Assembly (NCBI GenBank): GCA_017503785.1
Contig: JAFVSK010000018.1
Location: 1-64,000 of the forward strand
DNA length: 64,000 bases
Direction: 5' to 3'
Source of the DNA: Clostridia bacterium
GTDB taxonomy: Bacteria > Bacillota > Clostridia > Oscillospirales > Acutalibacteraceae
Shown: in pieces, positions 44,956-64,000 of the stretch
Layout of the letters: each line of letters starts with the position of its first letter
How positions within the stretch are numbered: position 1 is the first letter of the stretch
The notes under the pieces: model-generated
Told to the model about the DNA's origin: nothing
Database searches by the model: none
What the model saw: the letters and a program-made list of their open reading frames with translations, nothing else
Translations under genes and position numbers: made by a program

Positions 44956-44971
44956 GCCCCTTTTTCGGTAC
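44956..44971 (+). promoter_or_regulatory. Regulon motif copy 0, upstream of the WYL gene promoter
   Basis: gcccctttttcggtac shares the TTTYGGTRC core with the four elements downstream. It lies eight bases upstream of the -35 box of a normal promoter, so the WYL gene may autoregulate here in a different geometry. Confidence 0.55.
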
Positions 44972-44979
44972 ATTGCCTA

Positions 44980-45008
44980 TTGCCAAATCCGTGCATCCGT
45001 GCTATGAT
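44980..45008 (+). promoter_or_regulatory. Promoter of the WYL regulator gene
   Basis: TTGCCA (44,980-44,985), 17 bases, TATGAT (45,003-45,008). This is a self-sufficient promoter, unlike those of the controlled genes. Confidence 0.8.
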
Positions 45009-45038
45009 GAACACAGACTACGCACAGGAGGGATAAGC

Positions 45039-46028
45039 ATGGACACCTTTGAGCCCAAAAAGTTGGCGCTGTTACGCATTTTGGAAATTCTGCAAAAACA
45101 CAGCGATTACGATCATCCGCTCACGCAGGAGGAGATTGCCGATTATCTGAAGCTGGATTACGGTATTGAAATTGAGCGCAAGGCCATCGGCCGTAATTTG
45201 TCGCTGCTGCAGGAAGCAGGCTACGAGGTGGAAACCCTCCGCCGCCGCGGCAGTTATTTGGAGGCGCGGGAGTTCGAGGATTACGAGCTGCGCATGCTCA
45301 TTGACGGTGTGCTGAGCAGCAACTATATCACTGCGTCACATTCCAAGGAGCTCATCAATAAGCTGTGCGGGTTATCCAACAAGTATTTCCGCGCCCACGT
45401 AAAGCACATTCATTCGGTAAACGAGTGGAATAAAACCGATAATCAGGCGTTGTTCTACAACATTGAGCAGGTGGACGAGGCCATCGAAAAGGGCGTGCAG
45501 CTGCACTTCGATTACAACAAGTACGGCATCGACAAGAAGCTGCACAAAACCAGCACGCATCGCGTTTCGCCCTATCAGCTGGTGCTACACAATCAGCGGT
45601 ATTATTTAATGTCGTTCCACGAGCATTACCGCAACATGACCTTCTACCGCGTCGACCACATTACCAATATGACGGTGCTTCCCGACCAACCGGCCACGCC
45701 GCTTAACACGGTGGAGGGTTTTAAGAACGGTATCAATTACAAGGAGCTTGCTTCGTCGTTCCCCTATATGTACACCGACAAACCGGAAAATATGGAATTT
45801 ATTGCGCAAAAATCGGTGATCGATCAAATCGTCGATTGGTTCGGCAGTGATATTCGTATTCTTAACCGCGACGAAAACACCGTTTCGGTCATGGTCAAGG
45901 CCAGTCCCAACGCCATGGAGCATTGGGCTATGCAATATATCAATTACGTGGAGATTTTAAAACCGCTCTCCCTGCGCGAAAAAATTAAAGAAAATTTGGC
46001 GGCAGCGCAGCAAAAATACGGAAGGTAA
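45039..46028 (+). CDS. WYL-domain transcriptional regulator
   Basis: A 329-residue regulator. The N-terminal winged helix (about residues 8-65) has a recognition helix with ERKAIGRNLSLL (Glu46-Arg52). The central WYL domain (about 130-225) has the family core HRVSPYQLVLHNQRYYLMSF with YYL in place of WYL, and a WCX-like C-terminal part (KENMEF to NYVEILKPLS). WYL proteins sense ligands, probably nucleic acids or nucleotides, and control DNA-damage and anti-phage genes. The DUF262 gene follows after ten bases. Its winged helix is closely similar to the C-terminus of the protein at 59,865. It is the best candidate to bind the shared 16-bp promoter element. Confidence 0.9.
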   Translation: MDTFEPKKLALLRILEILQKHSDYDHPLTQEEIADYLKLDYGIEIERKAIGRNLSLLQEAGYEVETLRRRGSYLEAREFEDYELRMLIDGVLSSNYITASHSKELINKLCGLSNKYFRAHVKHIHSVNEWNKTDNQALFYNIEQVDEAIEKGVQLHFDYNKYGIDKKLHKTSTHRVSPYQLVLHNQRYYLMSFHEHYRNMTFYRVDHITNMTVLPDQPATPLNTVEGFKNGINYKELASSFPYMYTDKPENMEFIAQKSVIDQIVDWFGSDIRILNRDENTVSVMVKASPNAMEHWAMQYINYVEILKPLSLREKIKENLAAAQQKYGR

Positions 46029-46038
46029 GGTAAAAGCA

Positions 46039-47796
46039 ATGGATTTTAAAAGCGTTACCATAAAAGGATTCTTTGGTCAACACAAAATTTCCTACACGAT
46101 CCCGCCGTATCAACGGGCGTATTCCTGGGAAGAAGATCAACTGAAAACGTTTTTGGAAGATCTGAAAGAGCACAAAAACAGCGGCATCGGAAATTCATAC
46201 TGCTACGGAAACGTGTTGTTAGAAACCATTACCAAGGACAGAAAATGGGAAATCATCGACGGTCAGCAACGAATTACTACGATCTCCATTTTCATCAGAA
46301 GCTTGATCAATGTTTTAGGCGAGCGTTTGGAGCGTGGCGAATCACTGATCGACTCCGCCGGCGATACCATTGATCTGTGCTACGAGGAAGAGGTGTTTTT
46401 GAAGGACCACGGTGTTGTGAAATTGCAGCCCACCCAAGGGGATATGGCTTGCTTTGAAACGGTGATCGTGGACAATCACACGGAATTTCTTTGCCAAACT
46501 CCCTCGCAGCACCGCATCCTGTTTGCCAAAACGTATTTTACGCGTGAGCTGCGCGGCTTACCCACCGACCGTTTGATAAACATTTATGAAATCCTTAATA
46601 ATTCCACGATAAATAAAATTGAACTCACCGGCAAAAAAGAATCGGCTCTTATGTTTGAACTGCAAAACAATCGCGGTAAGGACCTGACGAATCTGGAAAA
46701 GCTGAAGTCGTTTTTGATGTATCAGTTATACGTTTACAGCGAGCCCGAGGAAACCGAAGCCAACATTACCAAGCTCTCAAATTACTTCAACCCGATCTAC
46801 ACCCTTGTAAACCAAATGTCGATCACCCTCGATGAGGACGAGGACGACGTGGTGAGCACCAAGGTGACCGAGGATAATATTTTGCTGTACCATTCGTATG
46901 CCTACAGCAAAAAGCATTTCTCCTACAGAAACCTTAACGATATTTTTGACGAGTTCAAAGCGGTGCCGCCCGAAAGCAAGGTCGATTGGATCAGCGACTA
47001 TGCTTGCAAGCTGTATAACAGTTTCTCGTTTATTCAACGCGTAATCGGCTCGTCCGACAAAAATCTTTTGCGCCTTAAAAAAATGAATATGCCCTTCTTC
47101 GTCTATCCGTTTCTTATCCGTTGCTCACAAAATAAGGAAAACCTCCCCAAGCTTTTTGCGCTGATGGAGGTTTTGGGATTTCGGTATAAGCTGGTAAGCA
47201 GCCGCGCGGATATTCGCGGCAAGCTGACCGAGCTTATTAAGGACTTCGACGGTGACGTGGAGCTTCTCGCCGCAAAAATGGCAAACAAAATGGAAGCGGA
47301 GTATTATTGGGGCGATAAAAAGGTCGTTGACGTGTTAAACGGAAATATGTACAAAAATACGATGATCAATTATTTCCTTTGGGAATACGAGCAATTTTTG
47401 CAGAGCAAGGGTTATACCATCGGCGATCTGTCCTTGGAAAAAGAAAGCATTGAACACATTGCTCCGCAAACCGAGCCCGACAACCGCGAAAATGCCGGCT
47501 ATCCCATTGAGGAGGACGGCCTGTATTCCCAGGAGTTCCGAGACGCCTACGTGAACAAATTGGGAAATCTGATGCTGATCTCGCAGTCGCATAACTCCTC
47601 GATTGGCAACGTAGCGTTCGCAGAAAAATTAGCCTCGTACAACAAAAATCCCTTGTTAAATCAACAGGCGGAGATTAAATCCTTTGTGGAAAACGAAGAA
47701 CACCCCTTGTGGGATGCCGAGGCAATCGACAAGCGACACAAAAAAATGCTGGAATTCGCACTGCGCAGATGGGCGTATGTCCCCACCGAAAAATAA
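46039..47796 (+). CDS. DUF262/DUF1524 (GmrSD-like) protein
   Basis: A 585-residue protein. The N-terminal DUF262 domain has YTIPPYQRAYSWEEDQL and IIDGQQRITT (Asp74-Arg78), the ParB/Srx-like nucleotide-hydrolysing motif. The C-terminal DUF1524 HNH-like nuclease domain has SIEHIAPQ near residue 470, then LGNLMLISQSHNSSIGN and FAEKL. This is the layout of GmrSD and BrxU type IV restriction enzymes that attack modified phage DNA. It is co-transcribed with the WYL gene and ends at a strong terminator. Activity on modified DNA is inferred from family only. Confidence 0.9.
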   Translation: MDFKSVTIKGFFGQHKISYTIPPYQRAYSWEEDQLKTFLEDLKEHKNSGIGNSYCYGNVLLETITKDRKWEIIDGQQRITTISIFIRSLINVLGERLERGESLIDSAGDTIDLCYEEEVFLKDHGVVKLQPTQGDMACFETVIVDNHTEFLCQTPSQHRILFAKTYFTRELRGLPTDRLINIYEILNNSTINKIELTGKKESALMFELQNNRGKDLTNLEKLKSFLMYQLYVYSEPEETEANITKLSNYFNPIYTLVNQMSITLDEDEDDVVSTKVTEDNILLYHSYAYSKKHFSYRNLNDIFDEFKAVPPESKVDWISDYACKLYNSFSFIQRVIGSSDKNLLRLKKMNMPFFVYPFLIRCSQNKENLPKLFALMEVLGFRYKLVSSRADIRGKLTELIKDFDGDVELLAAKMANKMEAEYYWGDKKVVDVLNGNMYKNTMINYFLWEYEQFLQSKGYTIGDLSLEKESIEHIAPQTEPDNRENAGYPIEEDGLYSQEFRDAYVNKLGNLMLISQSHNSSIGNVAFAEKLASYNKNPLLNQQAEIKSFVENEEHPLWDAEAIDKRHKKMLEFALRRWAYVPTEK

Positions 47797-47817
47797 CCCC
47801 TTTTTTAAAAACAACCA

Positions 47818-47860
47818 AAAACACCCTGCAGCACCCGGCTGCAGGGTGTTTCTTTTTTTT
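47818..47860 (+). terminator. Terminator of the WYL-DUF262 operon
   Basis: Stem aaacaccctgcagc / gctgcagggtgttt with loop acccg, then a run of eight T. The regulon motif begins at the next base. Confidence 0.95.
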
Positions 47861-47893
47861 GTACCATTTTTGGTGCGTAAGATGCTTTATACT
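47861..47893 (+). promoter_or_regulatory. Regulon promoter P1 (motif plus -10)
   Basis: Motif gtaccatttttggtgc (47,861-47,876), 11 bases, TATACT (47,888-47,893). There is no consensus -35; the motif covers that position. Confidence 0.8.
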
Positions 47894-47928: not shown

Positions 47929-49938
47929 ATGGTATTTTACAAAGTTGAAGCCACCGTATCGGCAGAAAAAAACGATGAAAACACCGGCAGTTCGCAGGCG
48001 TTGCGCGCCGAACTGTGTGAAAGGAGCGAAACGCTGTACCGAAAAAGCCAAAAACGCTGCTTCGTGTTCGTTTCGTCCATGCGCCTTCCGCGCGTTATCT
48101 TTGGTGTGATCGCCGACCGACCGGACGCCGCGGAGCGGGCATTTGCCGAGTATATGGCACAGCTGCCGTTTCAGCCGGAGCGATATACATTTGAGGAAAG
48201 TACCTTCAGCGTCTTGAAGTTGCAATTGACAATTGCCTATCGCAACGATTATATCGTGGATAACGATACGGTGCTGAAACGGTTTGATCTTGCCCCCTTG
48301 GCCGACCGCTACAACGACATTCGTTTTGAAGAGGAGCTTCTCCCCGACGATATGACCGCCGCCAAGGCTCGGCGTATTTCGGACGAGCTGATGTTTAACG
48401 AAACCTTTACGCCGGAGCTGGAACGCATTTACACCTCCCCTGCCCACAGCAAAGCACCGGGGCATCCGGTACACTATCTTTTGCAGGCTGACGACAGCGA
48501 GAACCGTCGCCCCCTTTACGAGGCCCTGCTTGGCTCTCTTTACACGGTGGGGCGGCTGAAAAACCGTCGGTACAGCTTAGTGGACTACGACGAGGAAAGC
48601 GATTTCCCCGGGTCGGGCTTGGAAGCGTTGTACAAAAGTTCGGGGAACGGCACCGTTATTCTGCGCTATACGGGCGACGGCGATGCCAACGGGCACTTCG
48701 CCAACCGCGGACTTGCACTGATTTCCGCGATCGGCCGTATCGCTGCGCGGTATCGCCACTCCGTTCTGACGGTGGTGTGGTTTCCTCTTGCCTGTCAACG
48801 CATTAAGCAGGAGCTACTGGTCACGTGGGAAAGCGCCTCATTCGTGGAGCTGTGCGAAAACCCCGCGTTTGGCGAGCGGGCGCTGCAATACCTCAAGCAG
48901 AAAGCCCGCACCCATGGGGTGCGCGCCGATAAGGCGTTGCTGTCGCTTCCCGAGCAGGAGCGTGGCTACACCGTTACCGACTTGAACCGTCTGTTCGGCA
49001 CTTGGTACGATCGCAAGCTGCGCACCGGTGTGTATCCGCAATACGCCGCAACGGTTACCGCCAAAACGCAGGTGCAGCAGAGCGAAGCGCGCGGCAGCGC
49101 TTACGACAAGCTGCAATCGCTCATTGGCCTTACCGAGGCCAAAAAGGTGTTAACGCAGGCGCTGAACTATCACAAGGCGAAAAAACTCTTTGCCGACCGC
49201 GGCATGCTGGCCGACCGCCCTGCCATGCACATGGTATTCACCGGCAACCCCGGCACCGCCAAAACCACCGTGGCGCGGTTGTTTGCGCAGATCATGAAGG
49301 AGAACGGCCTGCTGCTGAACGGCGATTTGTACGAGGTGGGGCGCGCCGATCTGGTGGGCAAGTACGTGGGACACACCGCCCCGCTGGTGAAGCAGGCGTT
49401 CAAAAAAGCCAGTGGCGGCGTGTTGTTTATCGACGAGGCTTACTCGCTGGTGGACGACCGCGACGGCATGTTCGGCGACGAGGCCATCAACACGCTGGTA
49501 CAGGAAATGGAAAATCATCGCCACGATACGGTGGTGATCTTTGCGGGCTATCCCGCCAAGATGGAGCACTTTTTGAACAAAAACCCCGGCTTGCGGTCGC
49601 GTATTGCGTTTCATATTCCGTTTGAGGATTACAACGCCGACGAGCTGTGCGACATTGCCGCGCTGATCGCCAAGGAAAAAGGGCTTTCCTTAACGGCCGA
49701 GGCAACAAACAAGCTGAACCACATTTTCCAAGGCGTGCAGGGCAGCGACGATTTCGGCAACGGTCGCTTTGTGCGCAACGTCATTGAACGTGCCAAAATG
49801 GTGCAGGCCAACCGCCTGCTTTCGATGGACGTGGACCGTTTGACAGATCGCGATATCGTGACACTGTGCGCCGAGGATTTTGAAGTACCCGACACGGCAC
49901 GCCGTTCCAATGTGATTAAAATGGGCTTTTCAGCCTGA
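47929..49938 (+). CDS. CbxX/CfqX-type AAA+ ATPase with large N-terminal domain
   Basis: A 669-residue protein. Residues 1-400 form an unrecognised N-terminal region. The C-terminal AAA+ module of the CbbX/SpoVK/EccA group has Walker A GNPGTAKTT (from residue 439), Walker B GVLFIDEAYSL (Asp502, Glu503), and LRSRIAFHIPF for sensor and arginine finger. Such AAA+ rings remodel partner proteins. The start is ATG 47,929 with cggaggg upstream. It is the first gene behind P1 and is followed by a SUFU-domain gene after 13 bases. It could remodel one of the DNA enzymes in the cluster (inference). Confidence 0.85.
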   Translation: MVFYKVEATVSAEKNDENTGSSQALRAELCERSETLYRKSQKRCFVFVSSMRLPRVIFGVIADRPDAAERAFAEYMAQLPFQPERYTFEESTFSVLKLQLTIAYRNDYIVDNDTVLKRFDLAPLADRYNDIRFEEELLPDDMTAAKARRISDELMFNETFTPELERIYTSPAHSKAPGHPVHYLLQADDSENRRPLYEALLGSLYTVGRLKNRRYSLVDYDEESDFPGSGLEALYKSSGNGTVILRYTGDGDANGHFANRGLALISAIGRIAARYRHSVLTVVWFPLACQRIKQELLVTWESASFVELCENPAFGERALQYLKQKARTHGVRADKALLSLPEQERGYTVTDLNRLFGTWYDRKLRTGVYPQYAATVTAKTQVQQSEARGSAYDKLQSLIGLTEAKKVLTQALNYHKAKKLFADRGMLADRPAMHMVFTGNPGTAKTTVARLFAQIMKENGLLLNGDLYEVGRADLVGKYVGHTAPLVKQAFKKASGGVLFIDEAYSLVDDRDGMFGDEAINTLVQEMENHRHDTVVIFAGYPAKMEHFLNKNPGLRSRIAFHIPFEDYNADELCDIAALIAKEKGLSLTAEATNKLNHIFQGVQGSDDFGNGRFVRNVIERAKMVQANRLLSMDVDRLTDRDIVTLCAEDFEVPDTARRSNVIKMGFSA

Positions 49939-49951
49939 AAGGATGATAGGT

Positions 49952-50716
49952 ATGAACACCCAAGTAATCTTCTACCCCGAGGAAGAACGCGAGGAGCTTT
50001 GCAAATTTATTGAGAAAAAATTCGGCCCCGACTGTCGCTTTATCTCCCACGAGCTGGACAGTGAATACGTGCACACCGACGTGCAGCTGCTCACTTCCGA
50101 AAACGGCAACCGCGAGTTCGTTACCAGCGGCATGGGAGCCCGCCCGATGAACTCCCCCACCGACTTTGAACGCACCGAGCTGGTCATGTCGTCCTCGACG
50201 GTGCCGGACACGACGGCAAGCGAAAGCTACCTCATCTGCAACGAACTGAGAAACCTGAGCAAATTTCCGTTTCGCAACGACACGTGGTTCGGCCCGGGAC
50301 ACACGATCAACGTGTCGGAAGCGTTTGAAGAACGCTTTGGTTACCCCTACGTTGCGTTTTACGACAGCGGTGTGTACGCCGAGATGGAGGGCGTGGGCGA
50401 AATCGGCTTTTTGAGGGCGGTACCCATTTACGAGGATGAGTATGACTGGATCGTGGAGAACGATACCGAGGTGTTCCTCCATCTGCTGCACGAAAAGCTG
50501 GGCGACGCCATGTTCTGCGTTGACTGCGAGCGGGAACACGTTGTTCCCGAGCACGCACTGGATGAGGATGACAAGTTTCTGCTGAACCTGATGCGTACGT
50601 TCCACACGGATTGGGAAACGGTGCAGGAACTGGCCGCCTACCTGGAAGACGTGAGCGAACGCGGCGAGGAGATCACCCGCGAACTCGTTGAGGCATGGCT
50701 TGAACAACGCGAATAA
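49952..50716 (+). CDS. SUFU (suppressor of fused)-domain protein
   Basis: A 254-residue acidic protein. The SUFU signature is visible in FVTSGMGARPMNSPTDFERT followed by ELVM and a later LRNLSKFPFRNDTWFGPGHT; GEIGFLRAVPIYEDEYDW belongs to the domain core. Bacterial SUFU proteins are mostly known as immunity proteins next to polymorphic toxins. No toxin gene lies beside it; the neighbour is the AAA+ protein in the same operon. The start is ATG 49,952 with aaagga upstream; an ATG nine bases earlier is too close to that site. Confidence 0.75.
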   Translation: MNTQVIFYPEEEREELCKFIEKKFGPDCRFISHELDSEYVHTDVQLLTSENGNREFVTSGMGARPMNSPTDFERTELVMSSSTVPDTTASESYLICNELRNLSKFPFRNDTWFGPGHTINVSEAFEERFGYPYVAFYDSGVYAEMEGVGEIGFLRAVPIYEDEYDWIVENDTEVFLHLLHEKLGDAMFCVDCEREHVVPEHALDEDDKFLLNLMRTFHTDWETVQELAAYLEDVSERGEEITRELVEAWLEQRE

Positions 50717-50720: not shown

Positions 50721-50752
50721 CAAGTAACGTACCGTTTTTGGTGCGTTACTTG
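50721..50752 (+). terminator. Extended inverted repeat over motif P2, possible terminator
   Basis: Arms caagtaacgtacc and ggtgcgttacttg pair over 13 bases (one T-G pair) with loop gttttt and are followed by tttt. It may end the upstream transcript and at the same time be the operator of the next. Confidence 0.6.
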
Positions 50753-50761
50753 TTTTATACT
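50729..50761 (+). promoter_or_regulatory. Regulon promoter P2 (motif plus -10)
   Basis: Motif gtaccgtttttggtgc (50,729-50,744), 11 bases, TATACT (50,756-50,761). Confidence 0.8.
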
Positions 50762-54424: not shown

Positions 54425-55533
54425 AAGACGTAGCAAGCAACATACCTGCCCTTTCGGTGGAGGCAACCATCAGCGCCTTGACCGATGCCTATTGCGCGGT
54501 GATCGGTGAGGGGCGCTCGCCCAAGGTGTTGCCCTCGGTGATGCTGTGGGGGCCGCCCGGTGTGGGTAAATCGCAAGCGATTCGGCAGATCGGCAAAAAC
54601 ATTGAGGAGCGCACCCACAAGCGGGTGTGCCTTACCGACGTGCGCCTGCTGCTGTTTAATCCCATTGACCTGCGCGGTATTCCCACCGCCAACGCCGACA
54701 AAACGCTGGCGATCTGGCTGAAGCCGCAGATCTTTCAAATGGATCCCGCCGAGGACGTGGTGAACATTCTGTTTTTGGATGAGATCTCCGCGGCACCGCA
54801 ATCGGTGCAGGCGGCAGCTTATCAGATCACGCTTGACCGCGTGGTAGGTGAGCACAAGCTACCCGACAACTGCATCGTCATTGCGGCCGGCAACCGCGTG
54901 ACTGATAAATCCGTGGCGTTTAAGATGCCCAAGGCATTGGCCAACCGTTTGCTGCACATTGAAATTAAGGGCAGCTTTGAATCGTGGCTGGGATGGGCGG
55001 CAAGCGCCGGCGTGAACGAAAAGGTGATGGGCTTTTTGGCCTATTCCCCCGACACGCTGTTTAATTTTGATGCTTCCGGCGACGATCTGGCCTTTGCCAC
55101 GCCCCGTTCGTGGGAAATGGTGAGCAACCTTTTGAATAACGTGTCGGAGGATGTGGAAGCCATGCTGCCGATGATCAGCGGCTTGGTGGGACTGGGCACG
55201 GCCACACTGTTTGCGGCCTTTTGCCGCAATGGCACGCTGCCGCGCGTGAAGAACATTTTTAACGGTACCGAGCAAAATTTTCCCGAGCATCCCGACGTGC
55301 TGTATTCGGTGCTGCTTTCCATGGTGTCGTATGCCAAGGAGCACAAGGACGACGTGGCGCAAATCCGCCATTCGCTGGCCTACGCCGCCAAGTTCCCGCC
55401 CGATTACGTGGCCTACCTGCTGAAAAACTACGCAGCCTTTGGCAACGATTACCAACGCTTCCTGAGCACTCTGCCCGAATATCATCAGTTAACGCAAAAG
55501 TGTGGTGTTCTACGCAATGGCGAACTCCGTTAA
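54421..55533 (+). CDS. MoxR-type AAA+ ATPase
   Basis: A 370-residue AAA+ ATPase of the MoxR branch. Walker A is WGPPGVGKSQ (residues 44-51), Walker B NILFLDEISAAPQSVQ near 120, sensor 1 is IVIAAGNR, and a C-terminal lid follows. MoxR proteins act as chaperones that mature or activate VWA-domain partners. It overlaps the helicase gene (ATGA) and the DUF2201/VWA gene, so the three proteins are co-translated and probably work together. Confidence 0.93.
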   Translation: MKDVASNIPALSVEATISALTDAYCAVIGEGRSPKVLPSVMLWGPPGVGKSQAIRQIGKNIEERTHKRVCLTDVRLLLFNPIDLRGIPTANADKTLAIWLKPQIFQMDPAEDVVNILFLDEISAAPQSVQAAAYQITLDRVVGEHKLPDNCIVIAAGNRVTDKSVAFKMPKALANRLLHIEIKGSFESWLGWAASAGVNEKVMGFLAYSPDTLFNFDASGDDLAFATPRSWEMVSNLLNNVSEDVEAMLPMISGLVGLGTATLFAAFCRNGTLPRVKNIFNGTEQNFPEHPDVLYSVLLSMVSYAKEHKDDVAQIRHSLAYAAKFPPDYVAYLLKNYAAFGNDYQRFLSTLPEYHQLTQKCGVLRNGELR

Positions 55534-57007: not shown

Positions 57008-57036
57008 CGATTTCGGTACGCAACCTTTGGTAAAGT
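57004..57036 (+). promoter_or_regulatory. Regulon promoter P3 (motif plus -10)
   Basis: Motif gtgacgatttcggtac (57,004-57,019), 11 bases, TAAAGT (57,031-57,036). The left half includes the stop codon of the upstream gene, which may explain why it departs from gtacc. Confidence 0.7.
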
Positions 57037-57058: not shown

Positions 57059-59014
57059 ATGAATCAATTGGAAAAAATGCGCGAGCTGGTCGATGCTATC
57101 AACAGCGCCGATACCGCCTATTATCAACACGACGAGCCCTCGCTTACCGACCGCGCCTACGACGAGCTGGTGCTGGAGTTGACCATGCTGGAGAAAATTA
57201 CCGGAGTGCATTTTTCCGACTCGCCCATCGGCAAGGTTCCTGCCGATACCAAAACCGAGCTGGAAACCGTGCGCCATTCCAAGCCGATGCTTTCGTGCAA
57301 TAAAACCAAGGACGTGAACGACCTGGTGCTGTTTGCCAAGCGCAAGGATTGCCTGCTCACTTGGAAGATGGACGGCTTGACCCTGGTGCTGCGCTACAAG
57401 CAGGGCAAGCTGGTACAGGCGATCACCCGCGGCAAGGACGGTCTGGTTGGCGAGGACGTTACCCATACCGTGCGCGAAATGCGCAACGTGCCCTCGCACG
57501 TGCCGTGCAAGGACGATTTTGAGGTGCGCGGCGAGGGCGTGGTGTCGTGGGAGGATTATAAGATCCTCACCAAGCTGGACGACAAAAGCTCTCACCCACG
57601 CAGCATGGCGGCCGGCGCGGTGCGCAGCTTCGTGGCAGATCTCGGCAAGCTCAATCACTTGGATTTCTTTGCCTTTGAGCTCATCAAGGAGGAACATGAG
57701 CCGCCCACCAAGCTGGAGCAGCTGGCCTTTTTAAAGGACAACGGCTTCGACGTGGTGGAATATCTGGAGGTGTATGCCGACGAGAAGGCCAGCGCCATTA
57801 TCGATCTGCTGGAGCAGTGGACACCCGAGGATTACGCGTATCCGGTCGACGGCATCGTTGCCGAGTACAACGACATTGCGTTCGGCCGCTCGCTGGGGGC
57901 TACTGCCCACCATGAAAAACGTATGTTGGCGCTGAAATGGCAGGACGAGCTGAAGGAAACCACGTTTCGCGGCGTGGAGCTGCACACCACGCGCAGCGGT
58001 AAGGTGAGCATTGTTGGTGTTTTCGATGAGGTCACCATCGACGGCACCAAGTTTCACCGCGCCAATTTGCACAATCTGAGCACCTTTGAGTCCTACCGCT
58101 TTGGCGTGGGCGACACAATCACCGTGTATAAGGCCAACAAGATCGTTCCGCAGATCGCCCAAAACAAAATGCTCAGCGGCACCTACGTGCTGCCGCGCTT
58201 TTGCCCGAGCTGCGGCGAGGAGCTGACGGTGCAGACCTCACTCTCCGGCGTGCGTAACTTGTATTGCCCCAACGAAGCCTGCGTGGCACGCAACGCCAAC
58301 CGCATTGCCGCCTATTGCGGGGCGATGGGCATTCACGGCATTTCGGCTTCGGTGGCCGAAAATATGGTGGCCTATGGGTGGATCAACCATTTCAAAGACC
58401 TGTATCATCTGGAGCTGTACCGCGAGGAGATCGCCAACACGCCCGGCTTTGGTGCCGACTGGTATTCCCGTATTCACGAGGCAATCGAAAGCGCGCGCAC
58501 TCCCTATATGTCGCAGTTTTTGCAGGGCTTGGGTATTCCCGCTGTGGGCACCGACGCGGCACTTCGTCTGCACGAATATTATAACGGGTCGATGACCGAT
58601 TTGGAAAAGGCGGCGAAAAAGAAGTTTGCGTTTTCGCATATTGAGGGAATCTCTCCCCGCGCCGAGGCGGCCCTTCACGAATGGTTCGGCAATCCCGCCA
58701 ACCTGAACATGCTGCACGAGCTGATGACCGAGCTTCAGTTTTCGGGAGTAGTGCCGAAAAAAATCACTGCCAAAAACCCCTTCCATGCAGCGAAGGTGGC
58801 GCTTTCGGGTGTGTATAAGACGCTGGACAAAAACGGCATGGCTGAGCTGCTGAAATCGCTGGGCGCTTTGGTGAGCAAGGAGATCACGGAGGAAACCGAG
58901 TTCTTTATCTACGGCGATATGCCCAACAGCAAGCTGGTGAGCCAAGCCATAAAGCAAGGCACCACCATGATGAGCGAGGAAAAATTCGCCGAAATGCTGG
59001 AGCAAGAGCTGTGA
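57059..59014 (+). CDS. Divergent NAD-dependent DNA ligase (LigA paralogue)
   Basis: A 651-residue ligase with every LigA domain in order: Ia (AYYQHDEPSLTDRAYDEL), adenylation domain with the nucleophile in TWKMDG (Lys103), ITRGKDGLVGEDVT and FEVRGEGVV, OB fold, Zn finger (CPSCG ... CPNEAC, near 381-405), helix-hairpin-helix and BRCT (about 575-651). It differs from housekeeping LigA at several conserved sites: the block normally reading RWAIAYKF is KRMLALKW, and RNxAAG is SHPRSMAAG. It should seal nicks, perhaps in special substrates. It stands behind regulon promoter P3 and overlaps the next gene by GTGA. Confidence 0.9.
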   Translation: MNQLEKMRELVDAINSADTAYYQHDEPSLTDRAYDELVLELTMLEKITGVHFSDSPIGKVPADTKTELETVRHSKPMLSCNKTKDVNDLVLFAKRKDCLLTWKMDGLTLVLRYKQGKLVQAITRGKDGLVGEDVTHTVREMRNVPSHVPCKDDFEVRGEGVVSWEDYKILTKLDDKSSHPRSMAAGAVRSFVADLGKLNHLDFFAFELIKEEHEPPTKLEQLAFLKDNGFDVVEYLEVYADEKASAIIDLLEQWTPEDYAYPVDGIVAEYNDIAFGRSLGATAHHEKRMLALKWQDELKETTFRGVELHTTRSGKVSIVGVFDEVTIDGTKFHRANLHNLSTFESYRFGVGDTITVYKANKIVPQIAQNKMLSGTYVLPRFCPSCGEELTVQTSLSGVRNLYCPNEACVARNANRIAAYCGAMGIHGISASVAENMVAYGWINHFKDLYHLELYREEIANTPGFGADWYSRIHEAIESARTPYMSQFLQGLGIPAVGTDAALRLHEYYNGSMTDLEKAAKKKFAFSHIEGISPRAEAALHEWFGNPANLNMLHELMTELQFSGVVPKKITAKNPFHAAKVALSGVYKTLDKNGMAELLKSLGALVSKEITEETEFFIYGDMPNSKLVSQAIKQGTTMMSEEKFAEMLEQEL

Positions 59015-59796
59015 TACTCCGCATCAAGGCGCTCACCGTTGAAGAAAACGGTAAGCTCGTTGTAGCCCGCACGTTCGACGGCGATCTTGCCGTGATTACG
59101 GGAGATACGTGTGCGCTCACGCAAGCGGTGCTGGCGGCTGTGCTCGGATACACAGCCCCCGCCTACTCTGCTGCCGTGCGGTTTTCGGCCGAAGTACAGG
59201 GTGATATTCTCTTTCACGTGAGCGGCAACAACACAAACGGTCATGCTGCGTTTTACCTGCAGGCGCACGACACCGACGGCAAGGACTGCACCGCCGCCTA
59301 TCGGGAGGCGCTGCAGCAAAGTGCCGAGGAGGCTTCGGCGAACTGCTTTTTGAGCGACGAGCGACAACGGTATCCGCAACGGCTGTTTCGGTATAAACAC
59401 ATCGACCGTTTCTTCTCCCGCGACACGTTTGCCGCGCGCACCGACGGTTTGGGTGTGACCCGCTGCTTTCGGGCGTTTTTGCGGCGCTATATCCGCGACT
59501 TCCGGCCACGGCCGCTGCCAAACGGCAAGCTATGGGTGCAGCTGCGGCCCGACGGCCGCTTCACACTGAACACCGAGCACGGCGAAGCCGCCCCCGCTCC
59601 CACCAAGGAAACGCGCGTGCTATACCGCTATCTCTGTTTTTTGATTTTGGCCGATTTTTGGCAGCAGGCCGAACAGCAACGGAATTTCCATCGCAGCGTT
59701 AAGCCCTTACTGGTGTGCGGGGCGCCACAGCAGGCGGCCGCCCTCGCGGCTGCCACACCGCCCGACCGTCAGGTGTTTTTATTGCTGGCCGGCTAG
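59011..59796 (+). CDS. Degenerate RecF/ABC-ATPase-like protein
   Basis: A 261-residue protein starting at GTG 59,011, coupled to the ligase gene by GTGA. DLAVITGDTCALTQAVLAAV near residue 25 occupies the place of a P-loop but lacks the GK[ST]. Later LWVQLRPDGRFTLN, LYRYLCFLILADFWQQAEQQ and DRQVFLLLAG look like the signature and final strands of RecF/SMC-type ATPases. I recall similar but intact ATPases in related bacteria; this one may only be structural. Assignment is tentative and rests on pattern, not on a single firm motif. Confidence 0.5.
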   Translation: MILRIKALTVEENGKLVVARTFDGDLAVITGDTCALTQAVLAAVLGYTAPAYSAAVRFSAEVQGDILFHVSGNNTNGHAAFYLQAHDTDGKDCTAAYREALQQSAEEASANCFLSDERQRYPQRLFRYKHIDRFFSRDTFAARTDGLGVTRCFRAFLRRYIRDFRPRPLPNGKLWVQLRPDGRFTLNTEHGEAAPAPTKETRVLYRYLCFLILADFWQQAEQQRNFHRSVKPLLVCGAPQQAAALAAATPPDRQVFLLLAG

Positions 59797-59800: not shown

Positions 59801-59833
59801 GTACCACTTTCGGTACATCGCGCCGTATATACT
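59801..59833 (+). promoter_or_regulatory. Regulon promoter P4 (motif plus -10)
   Basis: Motif gtaccactttcggtac (59,801-59,816), with perfect gtacc/ggtac arms, 11 bases, TATACT (59,828-59,833). Confidence 0.82.
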
Positions 59834-59864: not shown

Positions 59865-60920
59865 ATGAACAACACCACCTTGGACGCCATGAACGACGCC
59901 CTGCTTTCCCCTGCCGATTTTATCACGTTTATGTTCGAACGCACCGACGAGGACGGCGTGCTGTACATTCCCGGCTGGCATTACGATAATCCCGGCTGGG
60001 AGGTCAATGCCCCCGGCAGCACCGACGACGGAGCCAGCTATCGCTGCAAAATGAACTGGAACTTATTCAAATACGAAAAGGTGTTGGCAGAGTTCAAGGC
60101 CGTGTATGCGGCGCTGCAGCACATTGCTGCGGCAGGCGATCTGTTTGGTGCCTCGCCCGAAGAAGCCAAGGCTGCACTTGCCGACGAGTCGGTGTTTGCC
60201 GTATGGAATACCTATGTGCGCACCCTCGACGAGGGTGAGTTCGATACCGAGCGGGTAGAAACGATCTACGACAAGCAGGACACGATGGAATGGGTAAAGG
60301 CCATTGCCGCCCGTTTGGCAGCGGGGGAAACGCTTGAAAGCTTTGAAAAAGAAGCGTTGGCGGAATATATGGATATCGCCGTCACCGAGGAGGAGGTCGC
60401 TTATCGGTTTGCTTATCTGGAGCACCAACACAAGGAGGCCGAAAAGCGACTGGGCGACGGTTTGTGCGCCCACGACGTGTACATTCGTGCGCGCCGCCTT
60501 TGCCGCCTGTTGGCATTGAAGGCGCCCGCGCTGGTCGTTTGCAACGAAGCTCGCCAGTTCGCCGCAGCGTTTGTGCTGCAGCGGTACGGTCTGTCCCGCG
60601 AGGTGGTGGATAATACTATTCGCCTGCGCTTGGAGCAAATGGAACTGATGAGTGAGGATGAGCTGGACGAGCTGTACCGCCCACAGCGCTCCAACCGTCG
60701 CAAAAGCTTAGCACCGCTGTTTGTGTTTGAAATTTTGAGCAGGCACTCCAATTCCAAAACACATCTGCGGCAACGGGATATTCTGAAAGAGCTGGAAAAA
60801 TATCCCTATGAAATTTCACTGGAGCGCAAGGCGCTCGGTCGTATCATCCATAATTTGGTCGACACACCGCAATACGCCGTGTTTTCGGATAAAAGCGGCG
60901 TGTGGATCGAACAGGAATAA
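59865..60920 (+). CDS. Unknown protein with C-terminal winged helix paralogous to the WYL regulator
   Basis: A 351-residue protein. Residues 1-270 are acidic and mostly helical with no known domain (it opens with a Trp- and Tyr-rich segment, GWHYDNPGWEVNAPG). Residues 281-351 align with the DNA-binding domain of the WYL protein at 45,039: SLAPLFVFEILSRHSN against KLALLRILEILQKHSD, and LERKALGR against IERKAIGR in the recognition helix. It has no WYL domain. It may bind the same operator as co-regulator, or link DNA to the other proteins. It is first behind P4; a strong aaggag precedes ATG 59,865. Confidence 0.7.
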   Translation: MNNTTLDAMNDALLSPADFITFMFERTDEDGVLYIPGWHYDNPGWEVNAPGSTDDGASYRCKMNWNLFKYEKVLAEFKAVYAALQHIAAAGDLFGASPEEAKAALADESVFAVWNTYVRTLDEGEFDTERVETIYDKQDTMEWVKAIAARLAAGETLESFEKEALAEYMDIAVTEEEVAYRFAYLEHQHKEAEKRLGDGLCAHDVYIRARRLCRLLALKAPALVVCNEARQFAAAFVLQRYGLSREVVDNTIRLRLEQMELMSEDELDELYRPQRSNRRKSLAPLFVFEILSRHSNSKTHLRQRDILKELEKYPYEISLERKALGRIIHNLVDTPQYAVFSDKSGVWIEQE

Positions 60921-60941
60921 GCAGAAAAGGAGAAACAAATT

Positions 60942-61496
60942 ATGAAAGACGTATGGGTATTGTATGAGCGCTCGGATCTGGCGCGCGGCGGTGAATGGGA
61001 TTATCAGAACTATGCGACGGCATGCCGCGCGTTTGCCGATTTCGACACTGCCAAGCAAGCAATGCGAGATACCATTAAGCGCTACGCCACCGAAAAAAGC
61101 TCGATGTTTGACGGCGAGGGGAATCTCAACGAGCTGCTCGACCAATATTACTGTGACGATGATGAACGTGACACCTTCACCTACGTGGGCGAGCTGCTTC
61201 GCAAGCTTTGTCTGAATGAGCTGGACGATGCCACCGCAAAAGCCATCAAGCCGCTGTTTTGCACTACCTTCCTTTTTGCCGCCGAGATAACGACAGACAA
61301 CGGCGAGCCCGTGCTGCTGATGCGCGGTGATGACGACGGCCCTTGCAACGGTGTGAATCCCTACGTTCACACCAACCTGTTCTCCATGAACGACGATACC
61401 AAAGATTACTATTTCTACGTTGAGGATATGTTCCACATGGATTCCGACTTCTTCTCGCATCTGTTCCTGGATTTAAAAAAGGTTTCGGTGGAATAA
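60942..61496 (+). CDS. Acidic hypothetical protein
   Basis: A 184-residue acidic protein with no recognised family. It starts MKDVWVLYERSDLARGGEWD, has an acidic DDDERDTFTYVGELL segment near residue 75, and ends in an aromatic DYYFYVEDMFHMDSDFF stretch. It lies 21 bases after the winged-helix gene behind aaaaggag, so it is in the P4 operon. Strong acidity could mean DNA mimicry or protein binding, but this is only a thought. Confidence 0.55.
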   Translation: MKDVWVLYERSDLARGGEWDYQNYATACRAFADFDTAKQAMRDTIKRYATEKSSMFDGEGNLNELLDQYYCDDDERDTFTYVGELLRKLCLNELDDATAKAIKPLFCTTFLFAAEITTDNGEPVLLMRGDDDGPCNGVNPYVHTNLFSMNDDTKDYYFYVEDMFHMDSDFFSHLFLDLKKVSVE

Positions 61497-61525
61497 CCTT
61501 GTACTAAAAAAGAAGGAATTTGTGG

Positions 61526-61531
61526 TATACT
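61526..61531 (+). promoter_or_regulatory. -10 box before the phosphatase gene
   Basis: TATACT preceded by tgtgg. The 16-bp regulon motif is absent at the expected place and no clear -35 is seen, so this may be a weak internal promoter. Confidence 0.45.
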
Positions 61532-61552
61532 ATTGGTACGAGGAGGGATCGT

Positions 61553-62230
61553 ATGATTTATGCCATGAGTGATCTTCACGGCTGTTATGAAAAATACATA
61601 GCCATGCTGGACACCATTCAATTCAGCGAGCAGGATACCCTGTACGTGCTGGGCGACGTGGTGGATCGCGGCAACGGCGGTATACGCCTTTTGCAGGATA
61701 TGCAAAGCCGCCCAAACGTGGTGCCGTTGCGCGGAAATCACGACTGCATGGCCTACCGCATGCTGTCGGCACTTATCAACGACTGCATGGGCGACAGTGA
61801 CCGCTTTTTGCAGCTGTATGAGCTGTGGCTGCACGACGGCGGCGCCCCCACCTACGAGGCATTTGCCGCACTGACACCCGCTCAGCAGGCACAGATTCTT
61901 ACGTATCTCAATTCGTTTTTGATCTATGACGAGATCGCTGTGGGCGGAAACACGTTCTTTTTAGCGCACACCGTCCCCGAAAAAGAGCGCATGCTCCGGT
62001 TCGACAAGCTGCTGTGGCAGGAATTTATTGCAGGCGAGCCCGACTATGACCAAGAATACTATCCCGACAAATATCTGGTGACCGGCCACACGCCCACCGG
62101 CTTGATCGACCCCGCCTGTGCGGGCCGTATCTTCCGCCGCAATCGCCACATTGCTATTGATTGCGGTGCCGTGTTCGGCAAGTCGTTGGGCTGTATCTGC
62201 CTGGACACACTGGAGGAGTTCTATGTATAA
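61553..62230 (+). CDS. Calcineurin-like (PPP-type) metallophosphatase
   Basis: A 225-residue phosphoesterase. The metal-binding motifs are complete: MSDLHGCYEKY (DxH), VLGDVVDRGNGG (GDxxDRG), LRGNHDCM (GNHD) and VTGHTPTG (GH). This is the form of ApaH and PPP phosphatases acting on dinucleoside polyphosphates or phosphoproteins. It precedes the PolC-like gene by 18 bases and is probably co-transcribed, which suggests hydrolysis of a nucleotide signal or of a product of the polymerase; this is inference. Confidence 0.88.
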   Translation: MIYAMSDLHGCYEKYIAMLDTIQFSEQDTLYVLGDVVDRGNGGIRLLQDMQSRPNVVPLRGNHDCMAYRMLSALINDCMGDSDRFLQLYELWLHDGGAPTYEAFAALTPAQQAQILTYLNSFLIYDEIAVGGNTFFLAHTVPEKERMLRFDKLLWQEFIAGEPDYDQEYYPDKYLVTGHTPTGLIDPACAGRIFRRNRHIAIDCGAVFGKSLGCICLDTLEEFYV

Positions 62231-62248
62231 AGCAGAAAGGAAGGAAAA

Positions 62249-64000
62249 ATGGAACGCGTTGAACTACACCTACACACCAAGCTATCCGACGACGTTTCGG
62301 TTATTGAACCCGCCGAAGCCATAGAACGAGCACTGGCATGGCAGCACACCGCCGTTGCGTTCACCAATTTGAACAACGTGCAGGATTTCCCCGCCATTGC
62401 CGAGGCTGCAAGCAAGGCGCCGTCGCTGCGGGTGATCTACGGTGCCGAGCTGCGCTATGCCGCCGACAACGGTATCGCTCCCTACGGTATTACCGCGCTG
62501 GTGAAAAACCGCGCGGGACTTAAAGAACTGTATACCGTTTTATCGTCGCTGAAGGACGACGGCGTGTGCGAATTGATCGACACCGCCGTGCTGAAAAAAC
62601 ACCGCAAGAACCTGCTGATCGGTTCCTGCGGTGAGTTGAGCGAGTTATTTGCATTGATCGCGCGCGGCGCCGACCGCGAAGTCATTGAACGCGCCGCCGC
62701 CTTTTACGATTATTTTGAGATCTACCCCACCGACGATGCGGAGGAGCAGCGCGTGTATGCGGCGATCTTCCGCTTGGGCGAACAGCTGGGGGTTCCCGTG
62801 GCAGCTGTTGGCAACTGCCATTATTTAGACCGGCGCGACGAGCTCTGCCGCCGTGTGATGCGCACCGTTAAAGGGCACACCGACAAAAACACTCGCTTAT
62901 TCTTTCACTCCACCAAGGAAATGCTGGCCGCCTTTGCCTACTTGGGCGAGCGGGAAGCCTATCAAGCGGTGGTGTCCGATCCGCACACCATTGCCGCGTG
63001 TGTGGAAGCGGTATCGCCGCTTTGGGAAAACCGCTGCACGCCGGTGGTGGAAAACGCCGGCGAGCAGCTGTGCTCGTTAGCACACGCGCAGGCCAATGCG
63101 CTTTACGGCAGCCCGCTGCCCGCCCCTGTTGCCGAACGTCTGGAGGAGGAGCTGGGCCACATTCAGCGCCACGGCTTTGCGGTGCCGTATTTGGTAGCAT
63201 ACGAGTTGGCTCGCGCCATGCATCACGAGGGGGTTCGCACGGGAACGCGCGGCTCGCTGGGCTCAGTGCTGACAGCATTTTTTTTAGGAATTACCGACAG
63301 CAATCCCCTGCCGCCGCACTATCGCTGCGCACAAGGACATTACGCGGAATTTGCCGATGCCTTTGACGGTGCGGAGCTTCCCGCCAAGCCGTGCCCGGTG
63401 TGCGGCAGTCGTCTGATTGCCGACGGCCACAACATTCCCTATGAAACCTTTATGGGGTACGACGGCAGCGCTGTGCCCGATCTGTCGTTAAATTTCCCTG
63501 TTGCCAAGCGAACACGTGCGCTGGAACAACTAAAAACACAGTTCAGCGAGGAGCAGCTGGCCCATGCAGGGTGTATCACCACATTGTGGGAGCGCTTTGC
63601 CGAGGGATACATTGCCGTGTACGAGGCGGAAACTGCCGACTATCTCTCAAACAAGCAGCGCGACCGTGTGTGCCGCAAGCTGTGCGGCGTGAAGCGAAAC
63701 GTAGTCACGCATCCCTCGGCCGTTTTGGTGATGCCTGCCGAGCGGAACTTTACCGAGCTGACACCGCTGCGCGCCGCTGAACGCGACACGCCCATTCCGT
63801 CGGTTACGCAGCTCGACCATCACAGCCTGCGAAACAGTCTGATGCGCGTGGACGTGCTGGGGCACACCACGCTGGATCTGCTGATGGCCTTAGAGGCTGC
63901 CACCGGTTGTTCGGCCGATACGGTACCGTGGGACGATCCTGAAGTGTACGCATTGTTTGAAAGCGCCGACACGCTGGGGATTCCCGAGTTTGACTCGGAG
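62249..64000 (+). CDS. PolC-like DNA polymerase III alpha subunit, no exonuclease, altered active site (3' end outside window)
   Basis: 584 residues are visible and the frame is open at the window edge. It starts directly at a PHP domain (MERVELHLHTKLSDD; His7, His9), lacking PolC's N-terminal domains. PolC palm/fingers landmarks follow: TRGSLGSVLTAFFLGITDSN, CPVCGSRLIADGHNIPYETF, then VPDLSLNF and MRVDVLGHT. The distance from PHP to the GSLGS loop leaves no room for the 3'-5' exonuclease normally inserted in PolC. In the catalytic PDxD motif the second Asp is Ser413 (PDLS); Asp411 and Asp535 remain. So it may be catalytically weak or dead. It follows the phosphatase gene in one operon. Confidence 0.88.
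   Translation, partial: MERVELHLHTKLSDDVSVIEPAEAIERALAWQHTAVAFTNLNNVQDFPAIAEAASKAPSLRVIYGAELRYAADNGIAPYGITALVKNRAGLKELYTVLSSLKDDGVCELIDTAVLKKHRKNLLIGSCGELSELFALIARGADREVIERAAAFYDYFEIYPTDDAEEQRVYAAIFRLGEQLGVPVAAVGNCHYLDRRDELCRRVMRTVKGHTDKNTRLFFHSTKEMLAAFAYLGEREAYQAVVSDPHTIAACVEAVSPLWENRCTPVVENAGEQLCSLAHAQANALYGSPLPAPVAERLEEELGHIQRHGFAVPYLVAYELARAMHHEGVRTGTRGSLGSVLTAFFLGITDSNPLPPHYRCAQGHYAEFADAFDGAELPAKPCPVCGSRLIADGHNIPYETFMGYDGSAVPDLSLNFPVAKRTRALEQLKTQFSEEQLAHAGCITTLWERFAEGYIAVYEAETADYLSNKQRDRVCRKLCGVKRNVVTHPSAVLVMPAERNFTELTPLRAAERDTPIPSVTQLDHHSLRNSLMRVDVLGHTTLDLLMALEAATGCSADTVPWDDPEVYALFESADTLGIPEFDSE

What the first reader, a model, noticed from the sequence alone, without database searches (positions are those of the whole stretch)
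44956..64000. Candidate undescribed WYL-controlled DNA-processing system
Thirteen genes in a row on one strand, bounded on the left by a strong terminator, encode a WYL regulator, DUF262/HNH protein, CbxX AAA+, SUFU protein, SF2 helicase, MoxR ATPase, DUF2201/VWA, LigA paralogue, degenerate ATPase, winged-helix protein, acidic protein, PPP phosphatase and PolC-like polymerase. Four separate transcription units within it share one promoter element. A private ligase, polymerase and helicase under a WYL regulator suggest inducible repair, mutagenesis or phage defence. I know of WYL-controlled defence (BREX, CBASS) and of PafBC-controlled DNA damage response, but of no system with this set.
Basis: partly seen in the sequence, partly recalled or inferred. 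Interest (0 to 1): 0.95.

Follow-up and report, generated by a model that had tools for sequence, protein, structure and literature searches.

The report
WYL-switched helicase, ligase and polymerase island
Thirteen neighbouring genes in this bacterium encode a WYL-type regulator, a predicted DNA-cutting enzyme, a predicted helicase with two partner proteins, and extra relatives of DNA ligase and DNA polymerase; all thirteen gene families sit together again in another bacterium, four of the units carry one and the same unusual promoter signal, and the whole is likely an inducible defence against phages with its own DNA-repair tools.

Summary
Thirteen + strand genes (45036-64534) encode the families named, the genome has separate housekeeping LigA, PolC and DnaE, and four units share one promoter element. 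All 13 families lie within 30 kb in a second genome (G954). A strict core, SNF2 helicase-MoxR-DUF2201/VWA, stands in 24 of 27 readable loci, patchily (16 of 398 genomes of the family, own included). Ligase, mini-PolC and CbxX are accessories that come and go with GmrSD, McrBC, DUF2779, retron RT, RtcB and FtsH-like genes. The promoter element is G(T/C)ACC-N6-GGT(A/G)C, exactly 11 bp, then TATAAT, with no -35 box found. It recurs where the WYL orthologue is present (36 matches at that spacing against 3-12 at 20 others) and hardly where it is absent (3 against 0-8). That reads as a WYL activator site. Best explanation: an inducible anti-phage island with its own repair enzymes; defence itself is untested. 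Caveats: this copy's VWA has lost the HExxH glutamate and its mini-PolC one catalytic aspartate. The paper searches made listed no description of it. New variant of MoxR-vWA / WYL-controlled conflict systems.

The parts
44926..44947 (+). terminator bounding the island on the left
   Evidence: 9-pair stem, 7 G-C, then CTTTTTG
44980..45008 (+). ordinary promoter of the WYL gene (TTGCCA-17-TATGAT, TG before the -10); degenerate operator 44954-44971 just upstream
   Evidence: 10 of 12 consensus bases; operator half sites GTGCC/GGTAC with 8-bp spacer
45036..46028 (+). gene 1: WYL-WCX regulator with N-terminal wHTH, 330 aa; the only PF13280 match in the genome at E 0.001
   Evidence: PF13280, PF25583; orthologues of 54-71% identity in 9 relatives
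46039..47796 (+). gene 2: GmrSD-type (DUF262 + HNH) type IV restriction protein, DGQQR motif intact
   Evidence: PF03235 1.9e-33, PF07510 5.6e-19; motif scan
47819..47851 (+). strong terminator between unit 1 and unit 2
   Evidence: 14-pair stem then T-run
47861..47893 (+). operator-promoter of CbxX-SUFU unit: GTACC-N6-GGTGC, 11 bp, TATACT
47929..49938 (+). gene 3: CbxX/SpoVK-type AAA+ protein, 669 aa
   Evidence: PF00004, PF17866; TIGR02881 267 bits, below cut-off
49943..50716 (+). gene 4: SUFU-domain protein
   Evidence: PF05076 4.9e-21
50729..50761 (+). operator-promoter of the core unit: GTACC-N6-GGTGC, 11 bp, TATACT
50795..54424 (+). gene 5: SNF2 (SF2) helicase/translocase, core; DEAH box intact
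   Evidence: PF00176, PF00271; DEAH; same place in 24 of 27 readable loci
54421..55533 (+). gene 6: MoxR AAA+ ATPase, core
   Evidence: PF07726; Walker A and B intact
55502..57007 (+). gene 7: DUF2201 metallopeptidase-like domain + VWA with MIDAS; HExxH reads HQVLH here
   Evidence: PF13203, PF09967; alignment
57004..57036 (+). operator-promoter of the LigA unit: GTGAC-N6-GGTAC (one mismatch), 11 bp, TAAAGT
57059..59014 (+). gene 8: divergent NAD+-dependent DNA ligase, KMDG and zinc cysteines kept
   Evidence: PF01653, PF03120, PF12826; alignment to own LigA
59011..59796 (+). gene 9: fast-evolving protein of unknown fold, overlapping the end of gene 8
   Evidence: no Pfam match; relatives of 25-43% seen in like loci; database search found only itself
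59801..59833 (+). operator-promoter of gene 10 unit: perfect GTACC-N6-GGTAC, 11 bp, TATACT
59865..60920 (+). gene 10: helical protein ending in a wHTH like that of the WYL regulator
   Evidence: BLASTP 47% over 47 residues, E 1e-6; 52-54% relative in L041/G954
60942..61496 (+). gene 11: small acidic protein
   Evidence: relatives of 26-33% identity in 5 like loci
61520..62230 (+). gene 12: PPP-type phosphoesterase (GDVVDRG, GNHD), next to mini-PolC
   Evidence: PF00149; motifs
62249..64000 (+). gene 13: mini-PolC (PHP, palm, fingers; no exonuclease or OB domain matched; C-terminal tail of PolC missing), runs on to 64534; second catalytic Asp is Ser

Best explanation
The locus is an island with a conserved core of SNF2 helicase, MoxR ATPase and DUF2201/VWA protein, four of its units share one promoter element, and it is likely an inducible anti-phage (foreign-DNA) defence in which a WYL protein would act as the switch. 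Shown by sequence: the core and its accessories recur in other genomes, and promoters with the GTACC-N6-GGTAC element at a fixed distance from the -10 go with the WYL orthologue. Inferred: the WYL dimer, made from its own ordinary promoter, binds single-stranded or fragmented DNA and then the element. The element's near half site falls at about -26, where PafBC binds, and the dimer would lend RNA polymerase the missing -35 contact (sigma adaptation), so that CbxX-SUFU, core, ligase and wHTH units come on together. Inferred: GmrSD (McrBC or other nucleases in relatives) cuts modified foreign DNA, the SNF2 motor, loaded or reset by the MoxR-VWA chaperone pair, strips or translocates the target, and LigA, PPP and mini-PolC (DnaB, retron RT or RtcB in relatives) reseal or copy the host's own damaged nucleic acid. 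In this copy the peptidase and polymerase sites look inactive, so those two would act as structural or regulatory parts.
For: Second complete set: G954 carries all 13 families in 30 kb, WYL 70%, SNF2 67%, LigA 59%, PPP 60%, mini-PolC 42%. Core: VWA follows MoxR in 29 of 29 loci, SNF2 precedes it in 24 of 27 readable ones. Patchy spread: 9 of 391 class and 16 of 398 family genomes including the own one, 0 of 6 others of the genus. Element: palindromes upstream of 15 of 188 ORFs where a WYL orthologue of 53% or more is present, 2 of 427 elsewhere, Fisher p 9e-7; both exceptions adjoin a WYL gene or fragment; inside ORFs 0 of 188 and 1 of 427. Rigid spacing: 0.53 of 76 sites have a -10 of 4/6 or better at offset 27, other offsets 0-0.24; 36 against 3-12 in the WYL group, 3 against 0-8 in the group without. 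In G954 the element also precedes the retron RT, CbxX, SNF2, LigA, wHTH and PPP-PolC genes. Whole genomes: exact operator matches 12 in seven WYL genomes (control 4; 8 of the 12 lie in the islands), 1 in seven others (control 3). Neighbours are in part defence-type: McrBC after WYL in G891 and G907, GmrSD copies, DUF2779, TIR, PD-(D/E)XK, Ec107-like retron RT. PafBC binds a -26 motif in place of the -35 contact and is activated by ssDNA (PMC11804915, passages and start of abstract).
Against: No function was measured. LigA is in 3 of 23 and mini-PolC in 1 of 23 loci of the MoxR search, so a repair arm is not essential. Own VWA has HQVLH, own PolC D-S-D; 60 of the 76 relatives under 1000 aa among the 120 listed keep all three Asp. 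Many loci have no WYL gene or element, and in this locus PPP-PolC has no element of its own. G891, a WYL genome, has no exact whole-genome match. A repressor reading is possible: BrxR, a WYL regulator of defence islands, represses from inverted repeats (PMC9122601, passages). Loose versions of the motif (two mismatches) are no commoner than the backward control in the genome (119+119 against 153+126). Groups for searches were set, and related loci (G877/G907) are not independent. Several neighbours of the core in relatives are unrelated to defence.
Confidence: 0.45

Rival explanations
1. A non-SOS DNA-damage regulon: the WYL protein senses ssDNA from damage and switches on spare helicase, ligase, polymerase and phosphoesterase for repair; phages are not the target.
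For: Ligase, polymerase, DnaB, RtcB and SNF2 are repair-type enzymes; the promoter geometry resembles the PafBC damage regulon.
Against: Patchy distribution, restriction, TIR and retron genes in the same loci, and loss of a catalytic residue in own PolC.
Confidence: 0.25
2. A defence island of independent systems that merely share one regulator: the SNF2-MoxR-VWA system, a GmrSD or McrBC restriction system, a CbxX-based system and a LigA/PPP-PolC repair set, shuffled as modules.
For: Modules occur apart: WYL-CbxX-g9 lies some 20 kb past the core in G959 and on another contig in G857; terminators and promoters separate units; accessories vary freely.
Against: One promoter class ties the modules together, and the 13-family set recurs almost in the same order in G954.
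Confidence: 0.22
3. Domesticated jumbo-phage or other mobile-element genes: the MoxR and metallopeptidase-VWA pair and the NAD ligase came from large phages and serve assembly or replication of an element.
For: Closest phage MoxR is 47% (Bacillus phage G), with a VWA relative 4 kb away annotated as HNH endonuclease; jumbo phages have such pairs (PMC7824862, passages); ligase relatives of 28-45% in the best 80 viral loci; one IMG/VR contig has SNF2-MoxR-VWA; a PcfJ-like protein, a family of conjugative plasmids by recall, lies beside the core in G907; SNF2 relatives of 31-39% are listed in phages and plasmids.
Against: Apart from PcfJ, no structural, relaxase or integrase family turned up in the window genes 1-13 or in the 40 neighbours scanned with Pfam, which are a part of all neighbours; mini-PolC not found in viral contigs; none of the 80 viral ligase loci has the core within the 10 kb held.
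Confidence: 0.08

Closest known systems
MoxR-vWA-centric ternary conflict systems (VMAP, iSTAND, FtsH, beta-propeller types; Kaur et al. 2020, PMC7159879, passages read)
   Same: Adjacent MoxR ATPase and vWA protein as a constant pair, a further constant partner, exchangeable accessory effectors, patchy spread. Four relatives of this locus also carry an FtsH-like AAA-M41 family (two members scanned).
   Different: The constant third partner is an SNF2 helicase; the vWA protein has an N-terminal DUF2201 domain; the named relatives are Clostridia-type genomes; WYL-linked promoter element; own ligase and polymerase. The one SNF2 passage of that paper describes it among effector domains, not as the third partner.
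BrxR-type WYL regulators of defence islands (PMC9122601, passages read)
   Same: A dimeric wHTH-WYL protein, inverted-repeat operators, control of islands with BREX or type IV restriction.
   Different: BrxR operators are 11-bp repeats with 5-bp spacer and repress; here 5-bp half sites with 6-bp spacer stand in the place of the -35 of several units at fixed distance from the -10.
PafBC DNA-damage activator of mycobacteria (PMC11804915, passages and start of abstract)
   Same: WYL protein, promoters without the usual -35 contact, near half site at about -26, -10 kept.
   Different: PafBC is a heterodimer of two WYL proteins; here one WYL gene in the genome and a two-fold symmetric site.
Jumbo-phage MoxR + metallopeptidase-vWA pair (PMC7824862, passages)
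   Same: Same two-protein pair, including the N-terminal metallopeptidase domain.
   Different: No SNF2 or WYL match beside it in the 19 kb of phage G examined; proposed in that paper to assemble virions.
DISARM / BREX helicase systems (PADLOC and NCBIfam matches)
   Same: The SNF2 protein matches DrmD and BrxH models, and one DrmA model weakly.
   Different: No methyltransferase, PglZ or BrxC match was listed for the locus (for gene 2 only the best 25 of 33 PADLOC matches are shown).

Membership tests
MoxR-vWA-centric ternary systems | adjacent MoxR ATPase and vWA protein | tested here: met
   29 of 29 loci
MoxR-vWA-centric ternary systems | third constant partner is VMAP, iSTAND, FtsH or beta-propeller | tested here: not met
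   constant partner is SNF2 in 24 of 27 readable loci; FtsH-like family only in 4 relatives' loci; VMAP has no model of its own in the libraries used, as far as I know
PafBC-type WYL activators | WYL/WCX domains with wHTH | tested here: met
PafBC-type WYL activators | heterodimer of two WYL genes | tested here: not met
   one WYL match in the genome
PafBC-type WYL activators | -35-less promoters with a motif near -26 at fixed spacing from the -10 | tested here: met
   geometry only; binding not tested
PafBC-type WYL activators | activation by ssDNA | not testable with these tools
   needs in vitro transcription
BREX | PglZ, BrxC and methyltransferase | tested here: not met
   no such match listed for window genes 1-10 (Pfam and PADLOC) or 11-13 (Pfam)
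DISARM | DrmA, DrmB and methyltransferase beside the helicase | tested here: not met
   only weak DrmD/DrmA matches to the SNF2 protein itself
GmrSD type IV restriction | DUF262 (GmrSD_N) and HNH (GmrSD_C) domains with DGQQR | tested here: met
   cutting not testable
NAD-dependent DNA ligase | adenylation and OB domains, zinc cysteines, HhH, KxDG lysine | tested here: met
   NF005932 over cut-off, TIGR00575 below
PolC DNA polymerase | three catalytic aspartates | tested here: not met
   D-S-D in this copy; of the 120 listed relatives 60 of 76 under 1000 aa and 42 of 44 longer ones keep all three; which columns are catalytic is recalled
PolC DNA polymerase | OB and 3'-5' exonuclease domains | tested here: not met
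   761 aa, PHP/palm/fingers only
Retron | reverse transcriptase and ncRNA in the locus | tested here: not met
   RT not found in the own stretch, present in 5 relatives' loci; ncRNA not tested

The most novel reading that the evidence does not exclude
A fifth class of MoxR-vWA conflict system, with an SNF2 motor as third partner, in which a homodimeric WYL activator works by sigma adaptation from -26/-37 half sites outside actinobacteria and induces a private miniature repair-replication kit (NAD ligase, exonuclease-less PolC, DnaB, retron RT or RtcB, depending on the genome) to restore the host's nucleic acids while type IV nucleases attack the invader.
Probability: 0.3. Interest if true: 0.92.

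Novelty: new variant of a known kind. Interest (0 to 1): 0.75.

Why it matters
If true, it shows WYL activators with a PafBC-like promoter logic in Clostridia-type bacteria, gives a sequence signature (GTACC-N6-GGTAC-N11-TATAAT) by which members of the regulon can be listed in any genome, and adds a class of conflict system that carries its own ligase and polymerase. It also makes a question directly testable: whether defence islands repair the damage that their own nucleases cause.

Tried and rejected
Empty-site test: the right flank was found in 5 of 6 same-genus genomes, at 42-68% protein identity for the right-flank genes matched near it (one weaker lysR-type match, 36%) and without the left flank beside it (one genome has weak ABC-transporter matches only), so the insertion edges could not be drawn. 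Structure prediction of genes 10 and 9 gave mean pLDDT 46 and 55; no fold search was run on them. Gene 9 looks to the eye like a worn ABC/SMC-type ATPase, but Pfam gives nothing for three members; I do not claim it. The database search for gene 9 found only itself. Mini-PolC in viral contigs: no relative. A PolC search of 197 genomes mostly returned long PolC frames and does not test co-occurrence. A one-mismatch motif count without spacing was noisy: 83 against 22 expected in WYL loci, but excess also in loci without WYL (125 against 84) and in window 1-44000 (46 against 25); it was replaced by the spacing test. Mutagenesis by the polymerase was considered and set aside because of the missing aspartate. 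Burroughs and Aravind 2016 on RNA repair systems, the likely best comparator for the RtcB variant, is not held.

Full report
WHAT IS THERE. The window is bases 1-64000 of a 181,790-base contig of a 2.06-Mb, 64-contig genome. From 45036 to 64534 thirteen genes follow each other on the + strand. Pfam gives WYL/WCX, GmrSD_N with GmrSD_C, CbxX-type AAA, SUFU, SNF2 with Helicase_C, MoxR-type AAA, DUF2201_N with DUF2201 (VWA), NAD-ligase domains, a calcineurin-like phosphoesterase, and PHP with PolC palm and fingers; genes 9, 10 and 11 have no significant match. The contig goes on with open frames on both strands.

EXTRA COPIES. The genome has an intact LigA on C53 (658 aa, 27% identical to gene 8), a PolC frame of 1483 aa on C53 and a further alpha-subunit match in a 1170-aa frame on C34, taken as DnaE. 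The 21 other ligases that I aligned are 50-62% identical to gene 8, KxDG invariant; gene 13 belongs to a mini-PolC family mostly of about 720-800 aa, some members of which are fused to an N-terminal DnaB-like helicase domain.

RECURRENCE. The other ligase loci of 39-51% identity show none of the other genes in what is held of them. A search with MoxR alone, which does not favour the ligase, at E 1e-60 found 9 of 391 genomes of the class sample and 16 of 398 of the family sample, the own genome counted in both, and none of 6 others of the own genus. I fetched the surroundings of all 23 other genomes. Over 29 separate loci with MoxR (own, 23, and 5 from the ligase scan; L044, L065 and L072 dropped as duplicates of G857, G621 and G321; L043 and L082, which lack MoxR at a contig edge, left out) VWA follows in 29 of 29, SNF2 precedes in 24 of 27 readable (G425 and L045 end there; G319, G402 and G604 lack it; in G441 and G780 SNF2 is split over two frames). 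Of the 23 from the MoxR search, LigA is beside the core in 3, a WYL match lies in the fetched stretch in 9 (one a fragment at a contig end), CbxX in 7 (one a fragment), mini-PolC in 1.

THE SECOND FULL SET. The genome of L041 (JAFXAP010000013.1, MAG RGIG6241, sheep rectum; G954) has, on one contig, the acidic gene, a retron RT, WYL 70%, a GmrSD-like gene (22%, weak), CbxX 52%, SUFU 41%, an LRR protein, SNF2 67%, MoxR 66%, VWA 56%, LigA 59%, gene 9 32%, a 127-aa gene, gene 10 52%, a 155-aa gene, then four genes on the other strand (two GmrSD-like, DUF2779 family, one more), then PPP 60% and mini-PolC 42%: all 13 families in about 30 kb. The acidic gene is at the left end there, not between gene 10 and PPP. 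PPP stands directly before mini-PolC in the own locus, G954 and G957 (contig C77), and one small gene away in G636; a second G957 copy is cut by the contig start.

NEIGHBOURS. I scanned 40 neighbour proteins of relatives with Pfam, a part of all. They include McrB/McrC after WYL (G907, G891), further GmrSD_N proteins (G621, L041, L042), DUF2779/Cas4-like (one scanned; its cluster is in 6 genomes), PD-(D/E)XK (G636), TIR-TPR (G512), RtcB with DUF2828/DUF7788 (G443), FtsH-like AAA-M41 (two scanned; cluster in 4 genomes), DnaB (G721), PcfJ-like (G907) and a retron RT (one scanned, Ec107-like by PADLOC; relatives in 5 loci, two of them shorter and more distant). Others have no match or are plainly unrelated (aspartyl-tRNA-synthetase type, MatE, GGDEF/EAL, Mur ligase, radical SAM), so the edges of the islands are not sharp.

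THE PROMOTER ELEMENT. In the own locus GTACC-N6-GGTRC stands at 47861, 50729 and 59801, with a one-mismatch copy at 57004, 55-68 bp before the start codons of CbxX, SNF2, gene 10 and LigA, and in each case a -10-like hexamer begins exactly 27 nt after the element's first base. The promoter scan found no -35/-10 pair at these four places, while WYL has an ordinary promoter. Three of four exact matches to GTRCCNNTTTYGGTRC in the genome lie in this 12-kb stretch. Over 14 genomes, exact matches on both strands number 12 in the seven WYL genomes (G000 4, G907 2, G954 2, G955 2, G877 1, G621 1, G891 0; backward control 4; 8 of the 12 lie in the islands) and 1 in the seven others (control 3). In fetched stretches, palindromes lie before 15 of 188 ORFs where a WYL orthologue of at least 53% is present and 2 of 427 elsewhere (Fisher p 9e-7); the same test inside ORFs gives 0 of 188 and 1 of 427. 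One of the 15 (before SUFU) lies inside the CbxX gene and is probably chance. The spacing to the -10 is the strongest sign: offset 27 gives 36 matches in the WYL group against 3-12 at the 20 other offsets tried, 11 against 2-9 in loci with a distant WYL or cut contigs, 3 against 0-8 in the group without. The 36 include one palindrome read on both strands and a few likely chance matches. Consensus of the 47 in the first two groups: G(T/C)ACC-W6-GGT(A/G)C-AT-N9-TATAAT. The grouping by WYL identity was fixed, so the p value is descriptive.

HOW IT MAY WORK. With the -10 at -12 to -7 the element covers -39 to -24 and its near half site -28 to -24. PafBC, a WYL activator, places one HTH on a -26 motif and the other on sigma domain 4, in place of the -35 contact, and needs ssDNA (PMC11804915, passages). 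A repressor does not need a fixed distance to the -10, an activator of this kind does; this is inference. BrxR shows that WYL proteins of defence islands can also repress (PMC9122601, passages). Gene 10 ends in a wHTH like that of the WYL protein (47% over 47 residues) and could read the same sites; this too is inference. Genes 11 to 13 have no element of their own here and may be read from the gene 10 promoter; in G954 and G907 PPP has one.

THE COPY IN HAND. Motif checks: MoxR Walker A/B, VWA MIDAS, SNF2 DEAH, ligase KMDG and zinc cysteines, GmrSD DGQQR and PPP GDVVDRG/GNHD are present. The VWA protein reads HQVLH where most of the relatives aligned read HExxH (G402, G604 and G319 also have Q), and the PolC aspartates read D-S-D, whereas 60 of 76 relatives under 1000 aa keep all three. 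This copy may be partly decayed, or these two may have become non-enzymatic.

LIMITS. Function was not tested. Several genomes are fragmented MAGs and the own genome is given 6% contamination. The literature statement rests on searches, of which I saw listings (most of them capped) and, for six papers, passages; subscription papers are mostly not held.

Noticed in passing
L249:1179-2327, G954 (L266 reversed), L267, L043:4673-5575, L253: A reverse transcriptase (retron Ec107-like by PADLOC for the one scanned, VTG motif) recurs in 5 loci of this kind, directly before WYL in G891 and G954, with the same promoter element before it there.
   Followed up: partly
P0047-P0050, P0053, P0056, P0057, P0060, P0061, P0068, P0071: Mini-PolC proteins fused behind a DnaB-like helicase domain: helicase and polymerase in one chain. 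Contig contexts not seen.
   Followed up: no
L214/L215 (G443): A variant locus with RtcB RNA ligase after VWA and a DUF2828/DUF7788 protein before SNF2, as if the DNA ligase were exchanged for an RNA ligase.
   Followed up: no
L285:14404-15582 (Bacillus phage G gp576): Annotated HNH endonuclease, but similar to the DUF2201/VWA protein (34% over 212 residues) and 4 kb from the phage's MoxR gene.
   Followed up: partly
window 50721-50752: The SNF2 operator sits in a longer inverted repeat (14 pairs) that also scans as a terminator, so operator and terminator of the unit before may be one sequence.
   Followed up: no
L286 (IMGVR_UViG_3300032167_007747): A contig filed as viral carries SNF2-MoxR-VWA (49%, 57%, 38-51%) without an exact copy of the promoter element.
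   Followed up: partly
G000:C35:21697-21712: The fourth exact operator match in the genome lies outside the island; its neighbours were not looked at.
   Followed up: no
L046-L063: Ligases of 42-48% identity to gene 8 (L051 apart) without the other genes of this island; several are in Lachnospiraceae. Their surroundings were not annotated.
   Followed up: no
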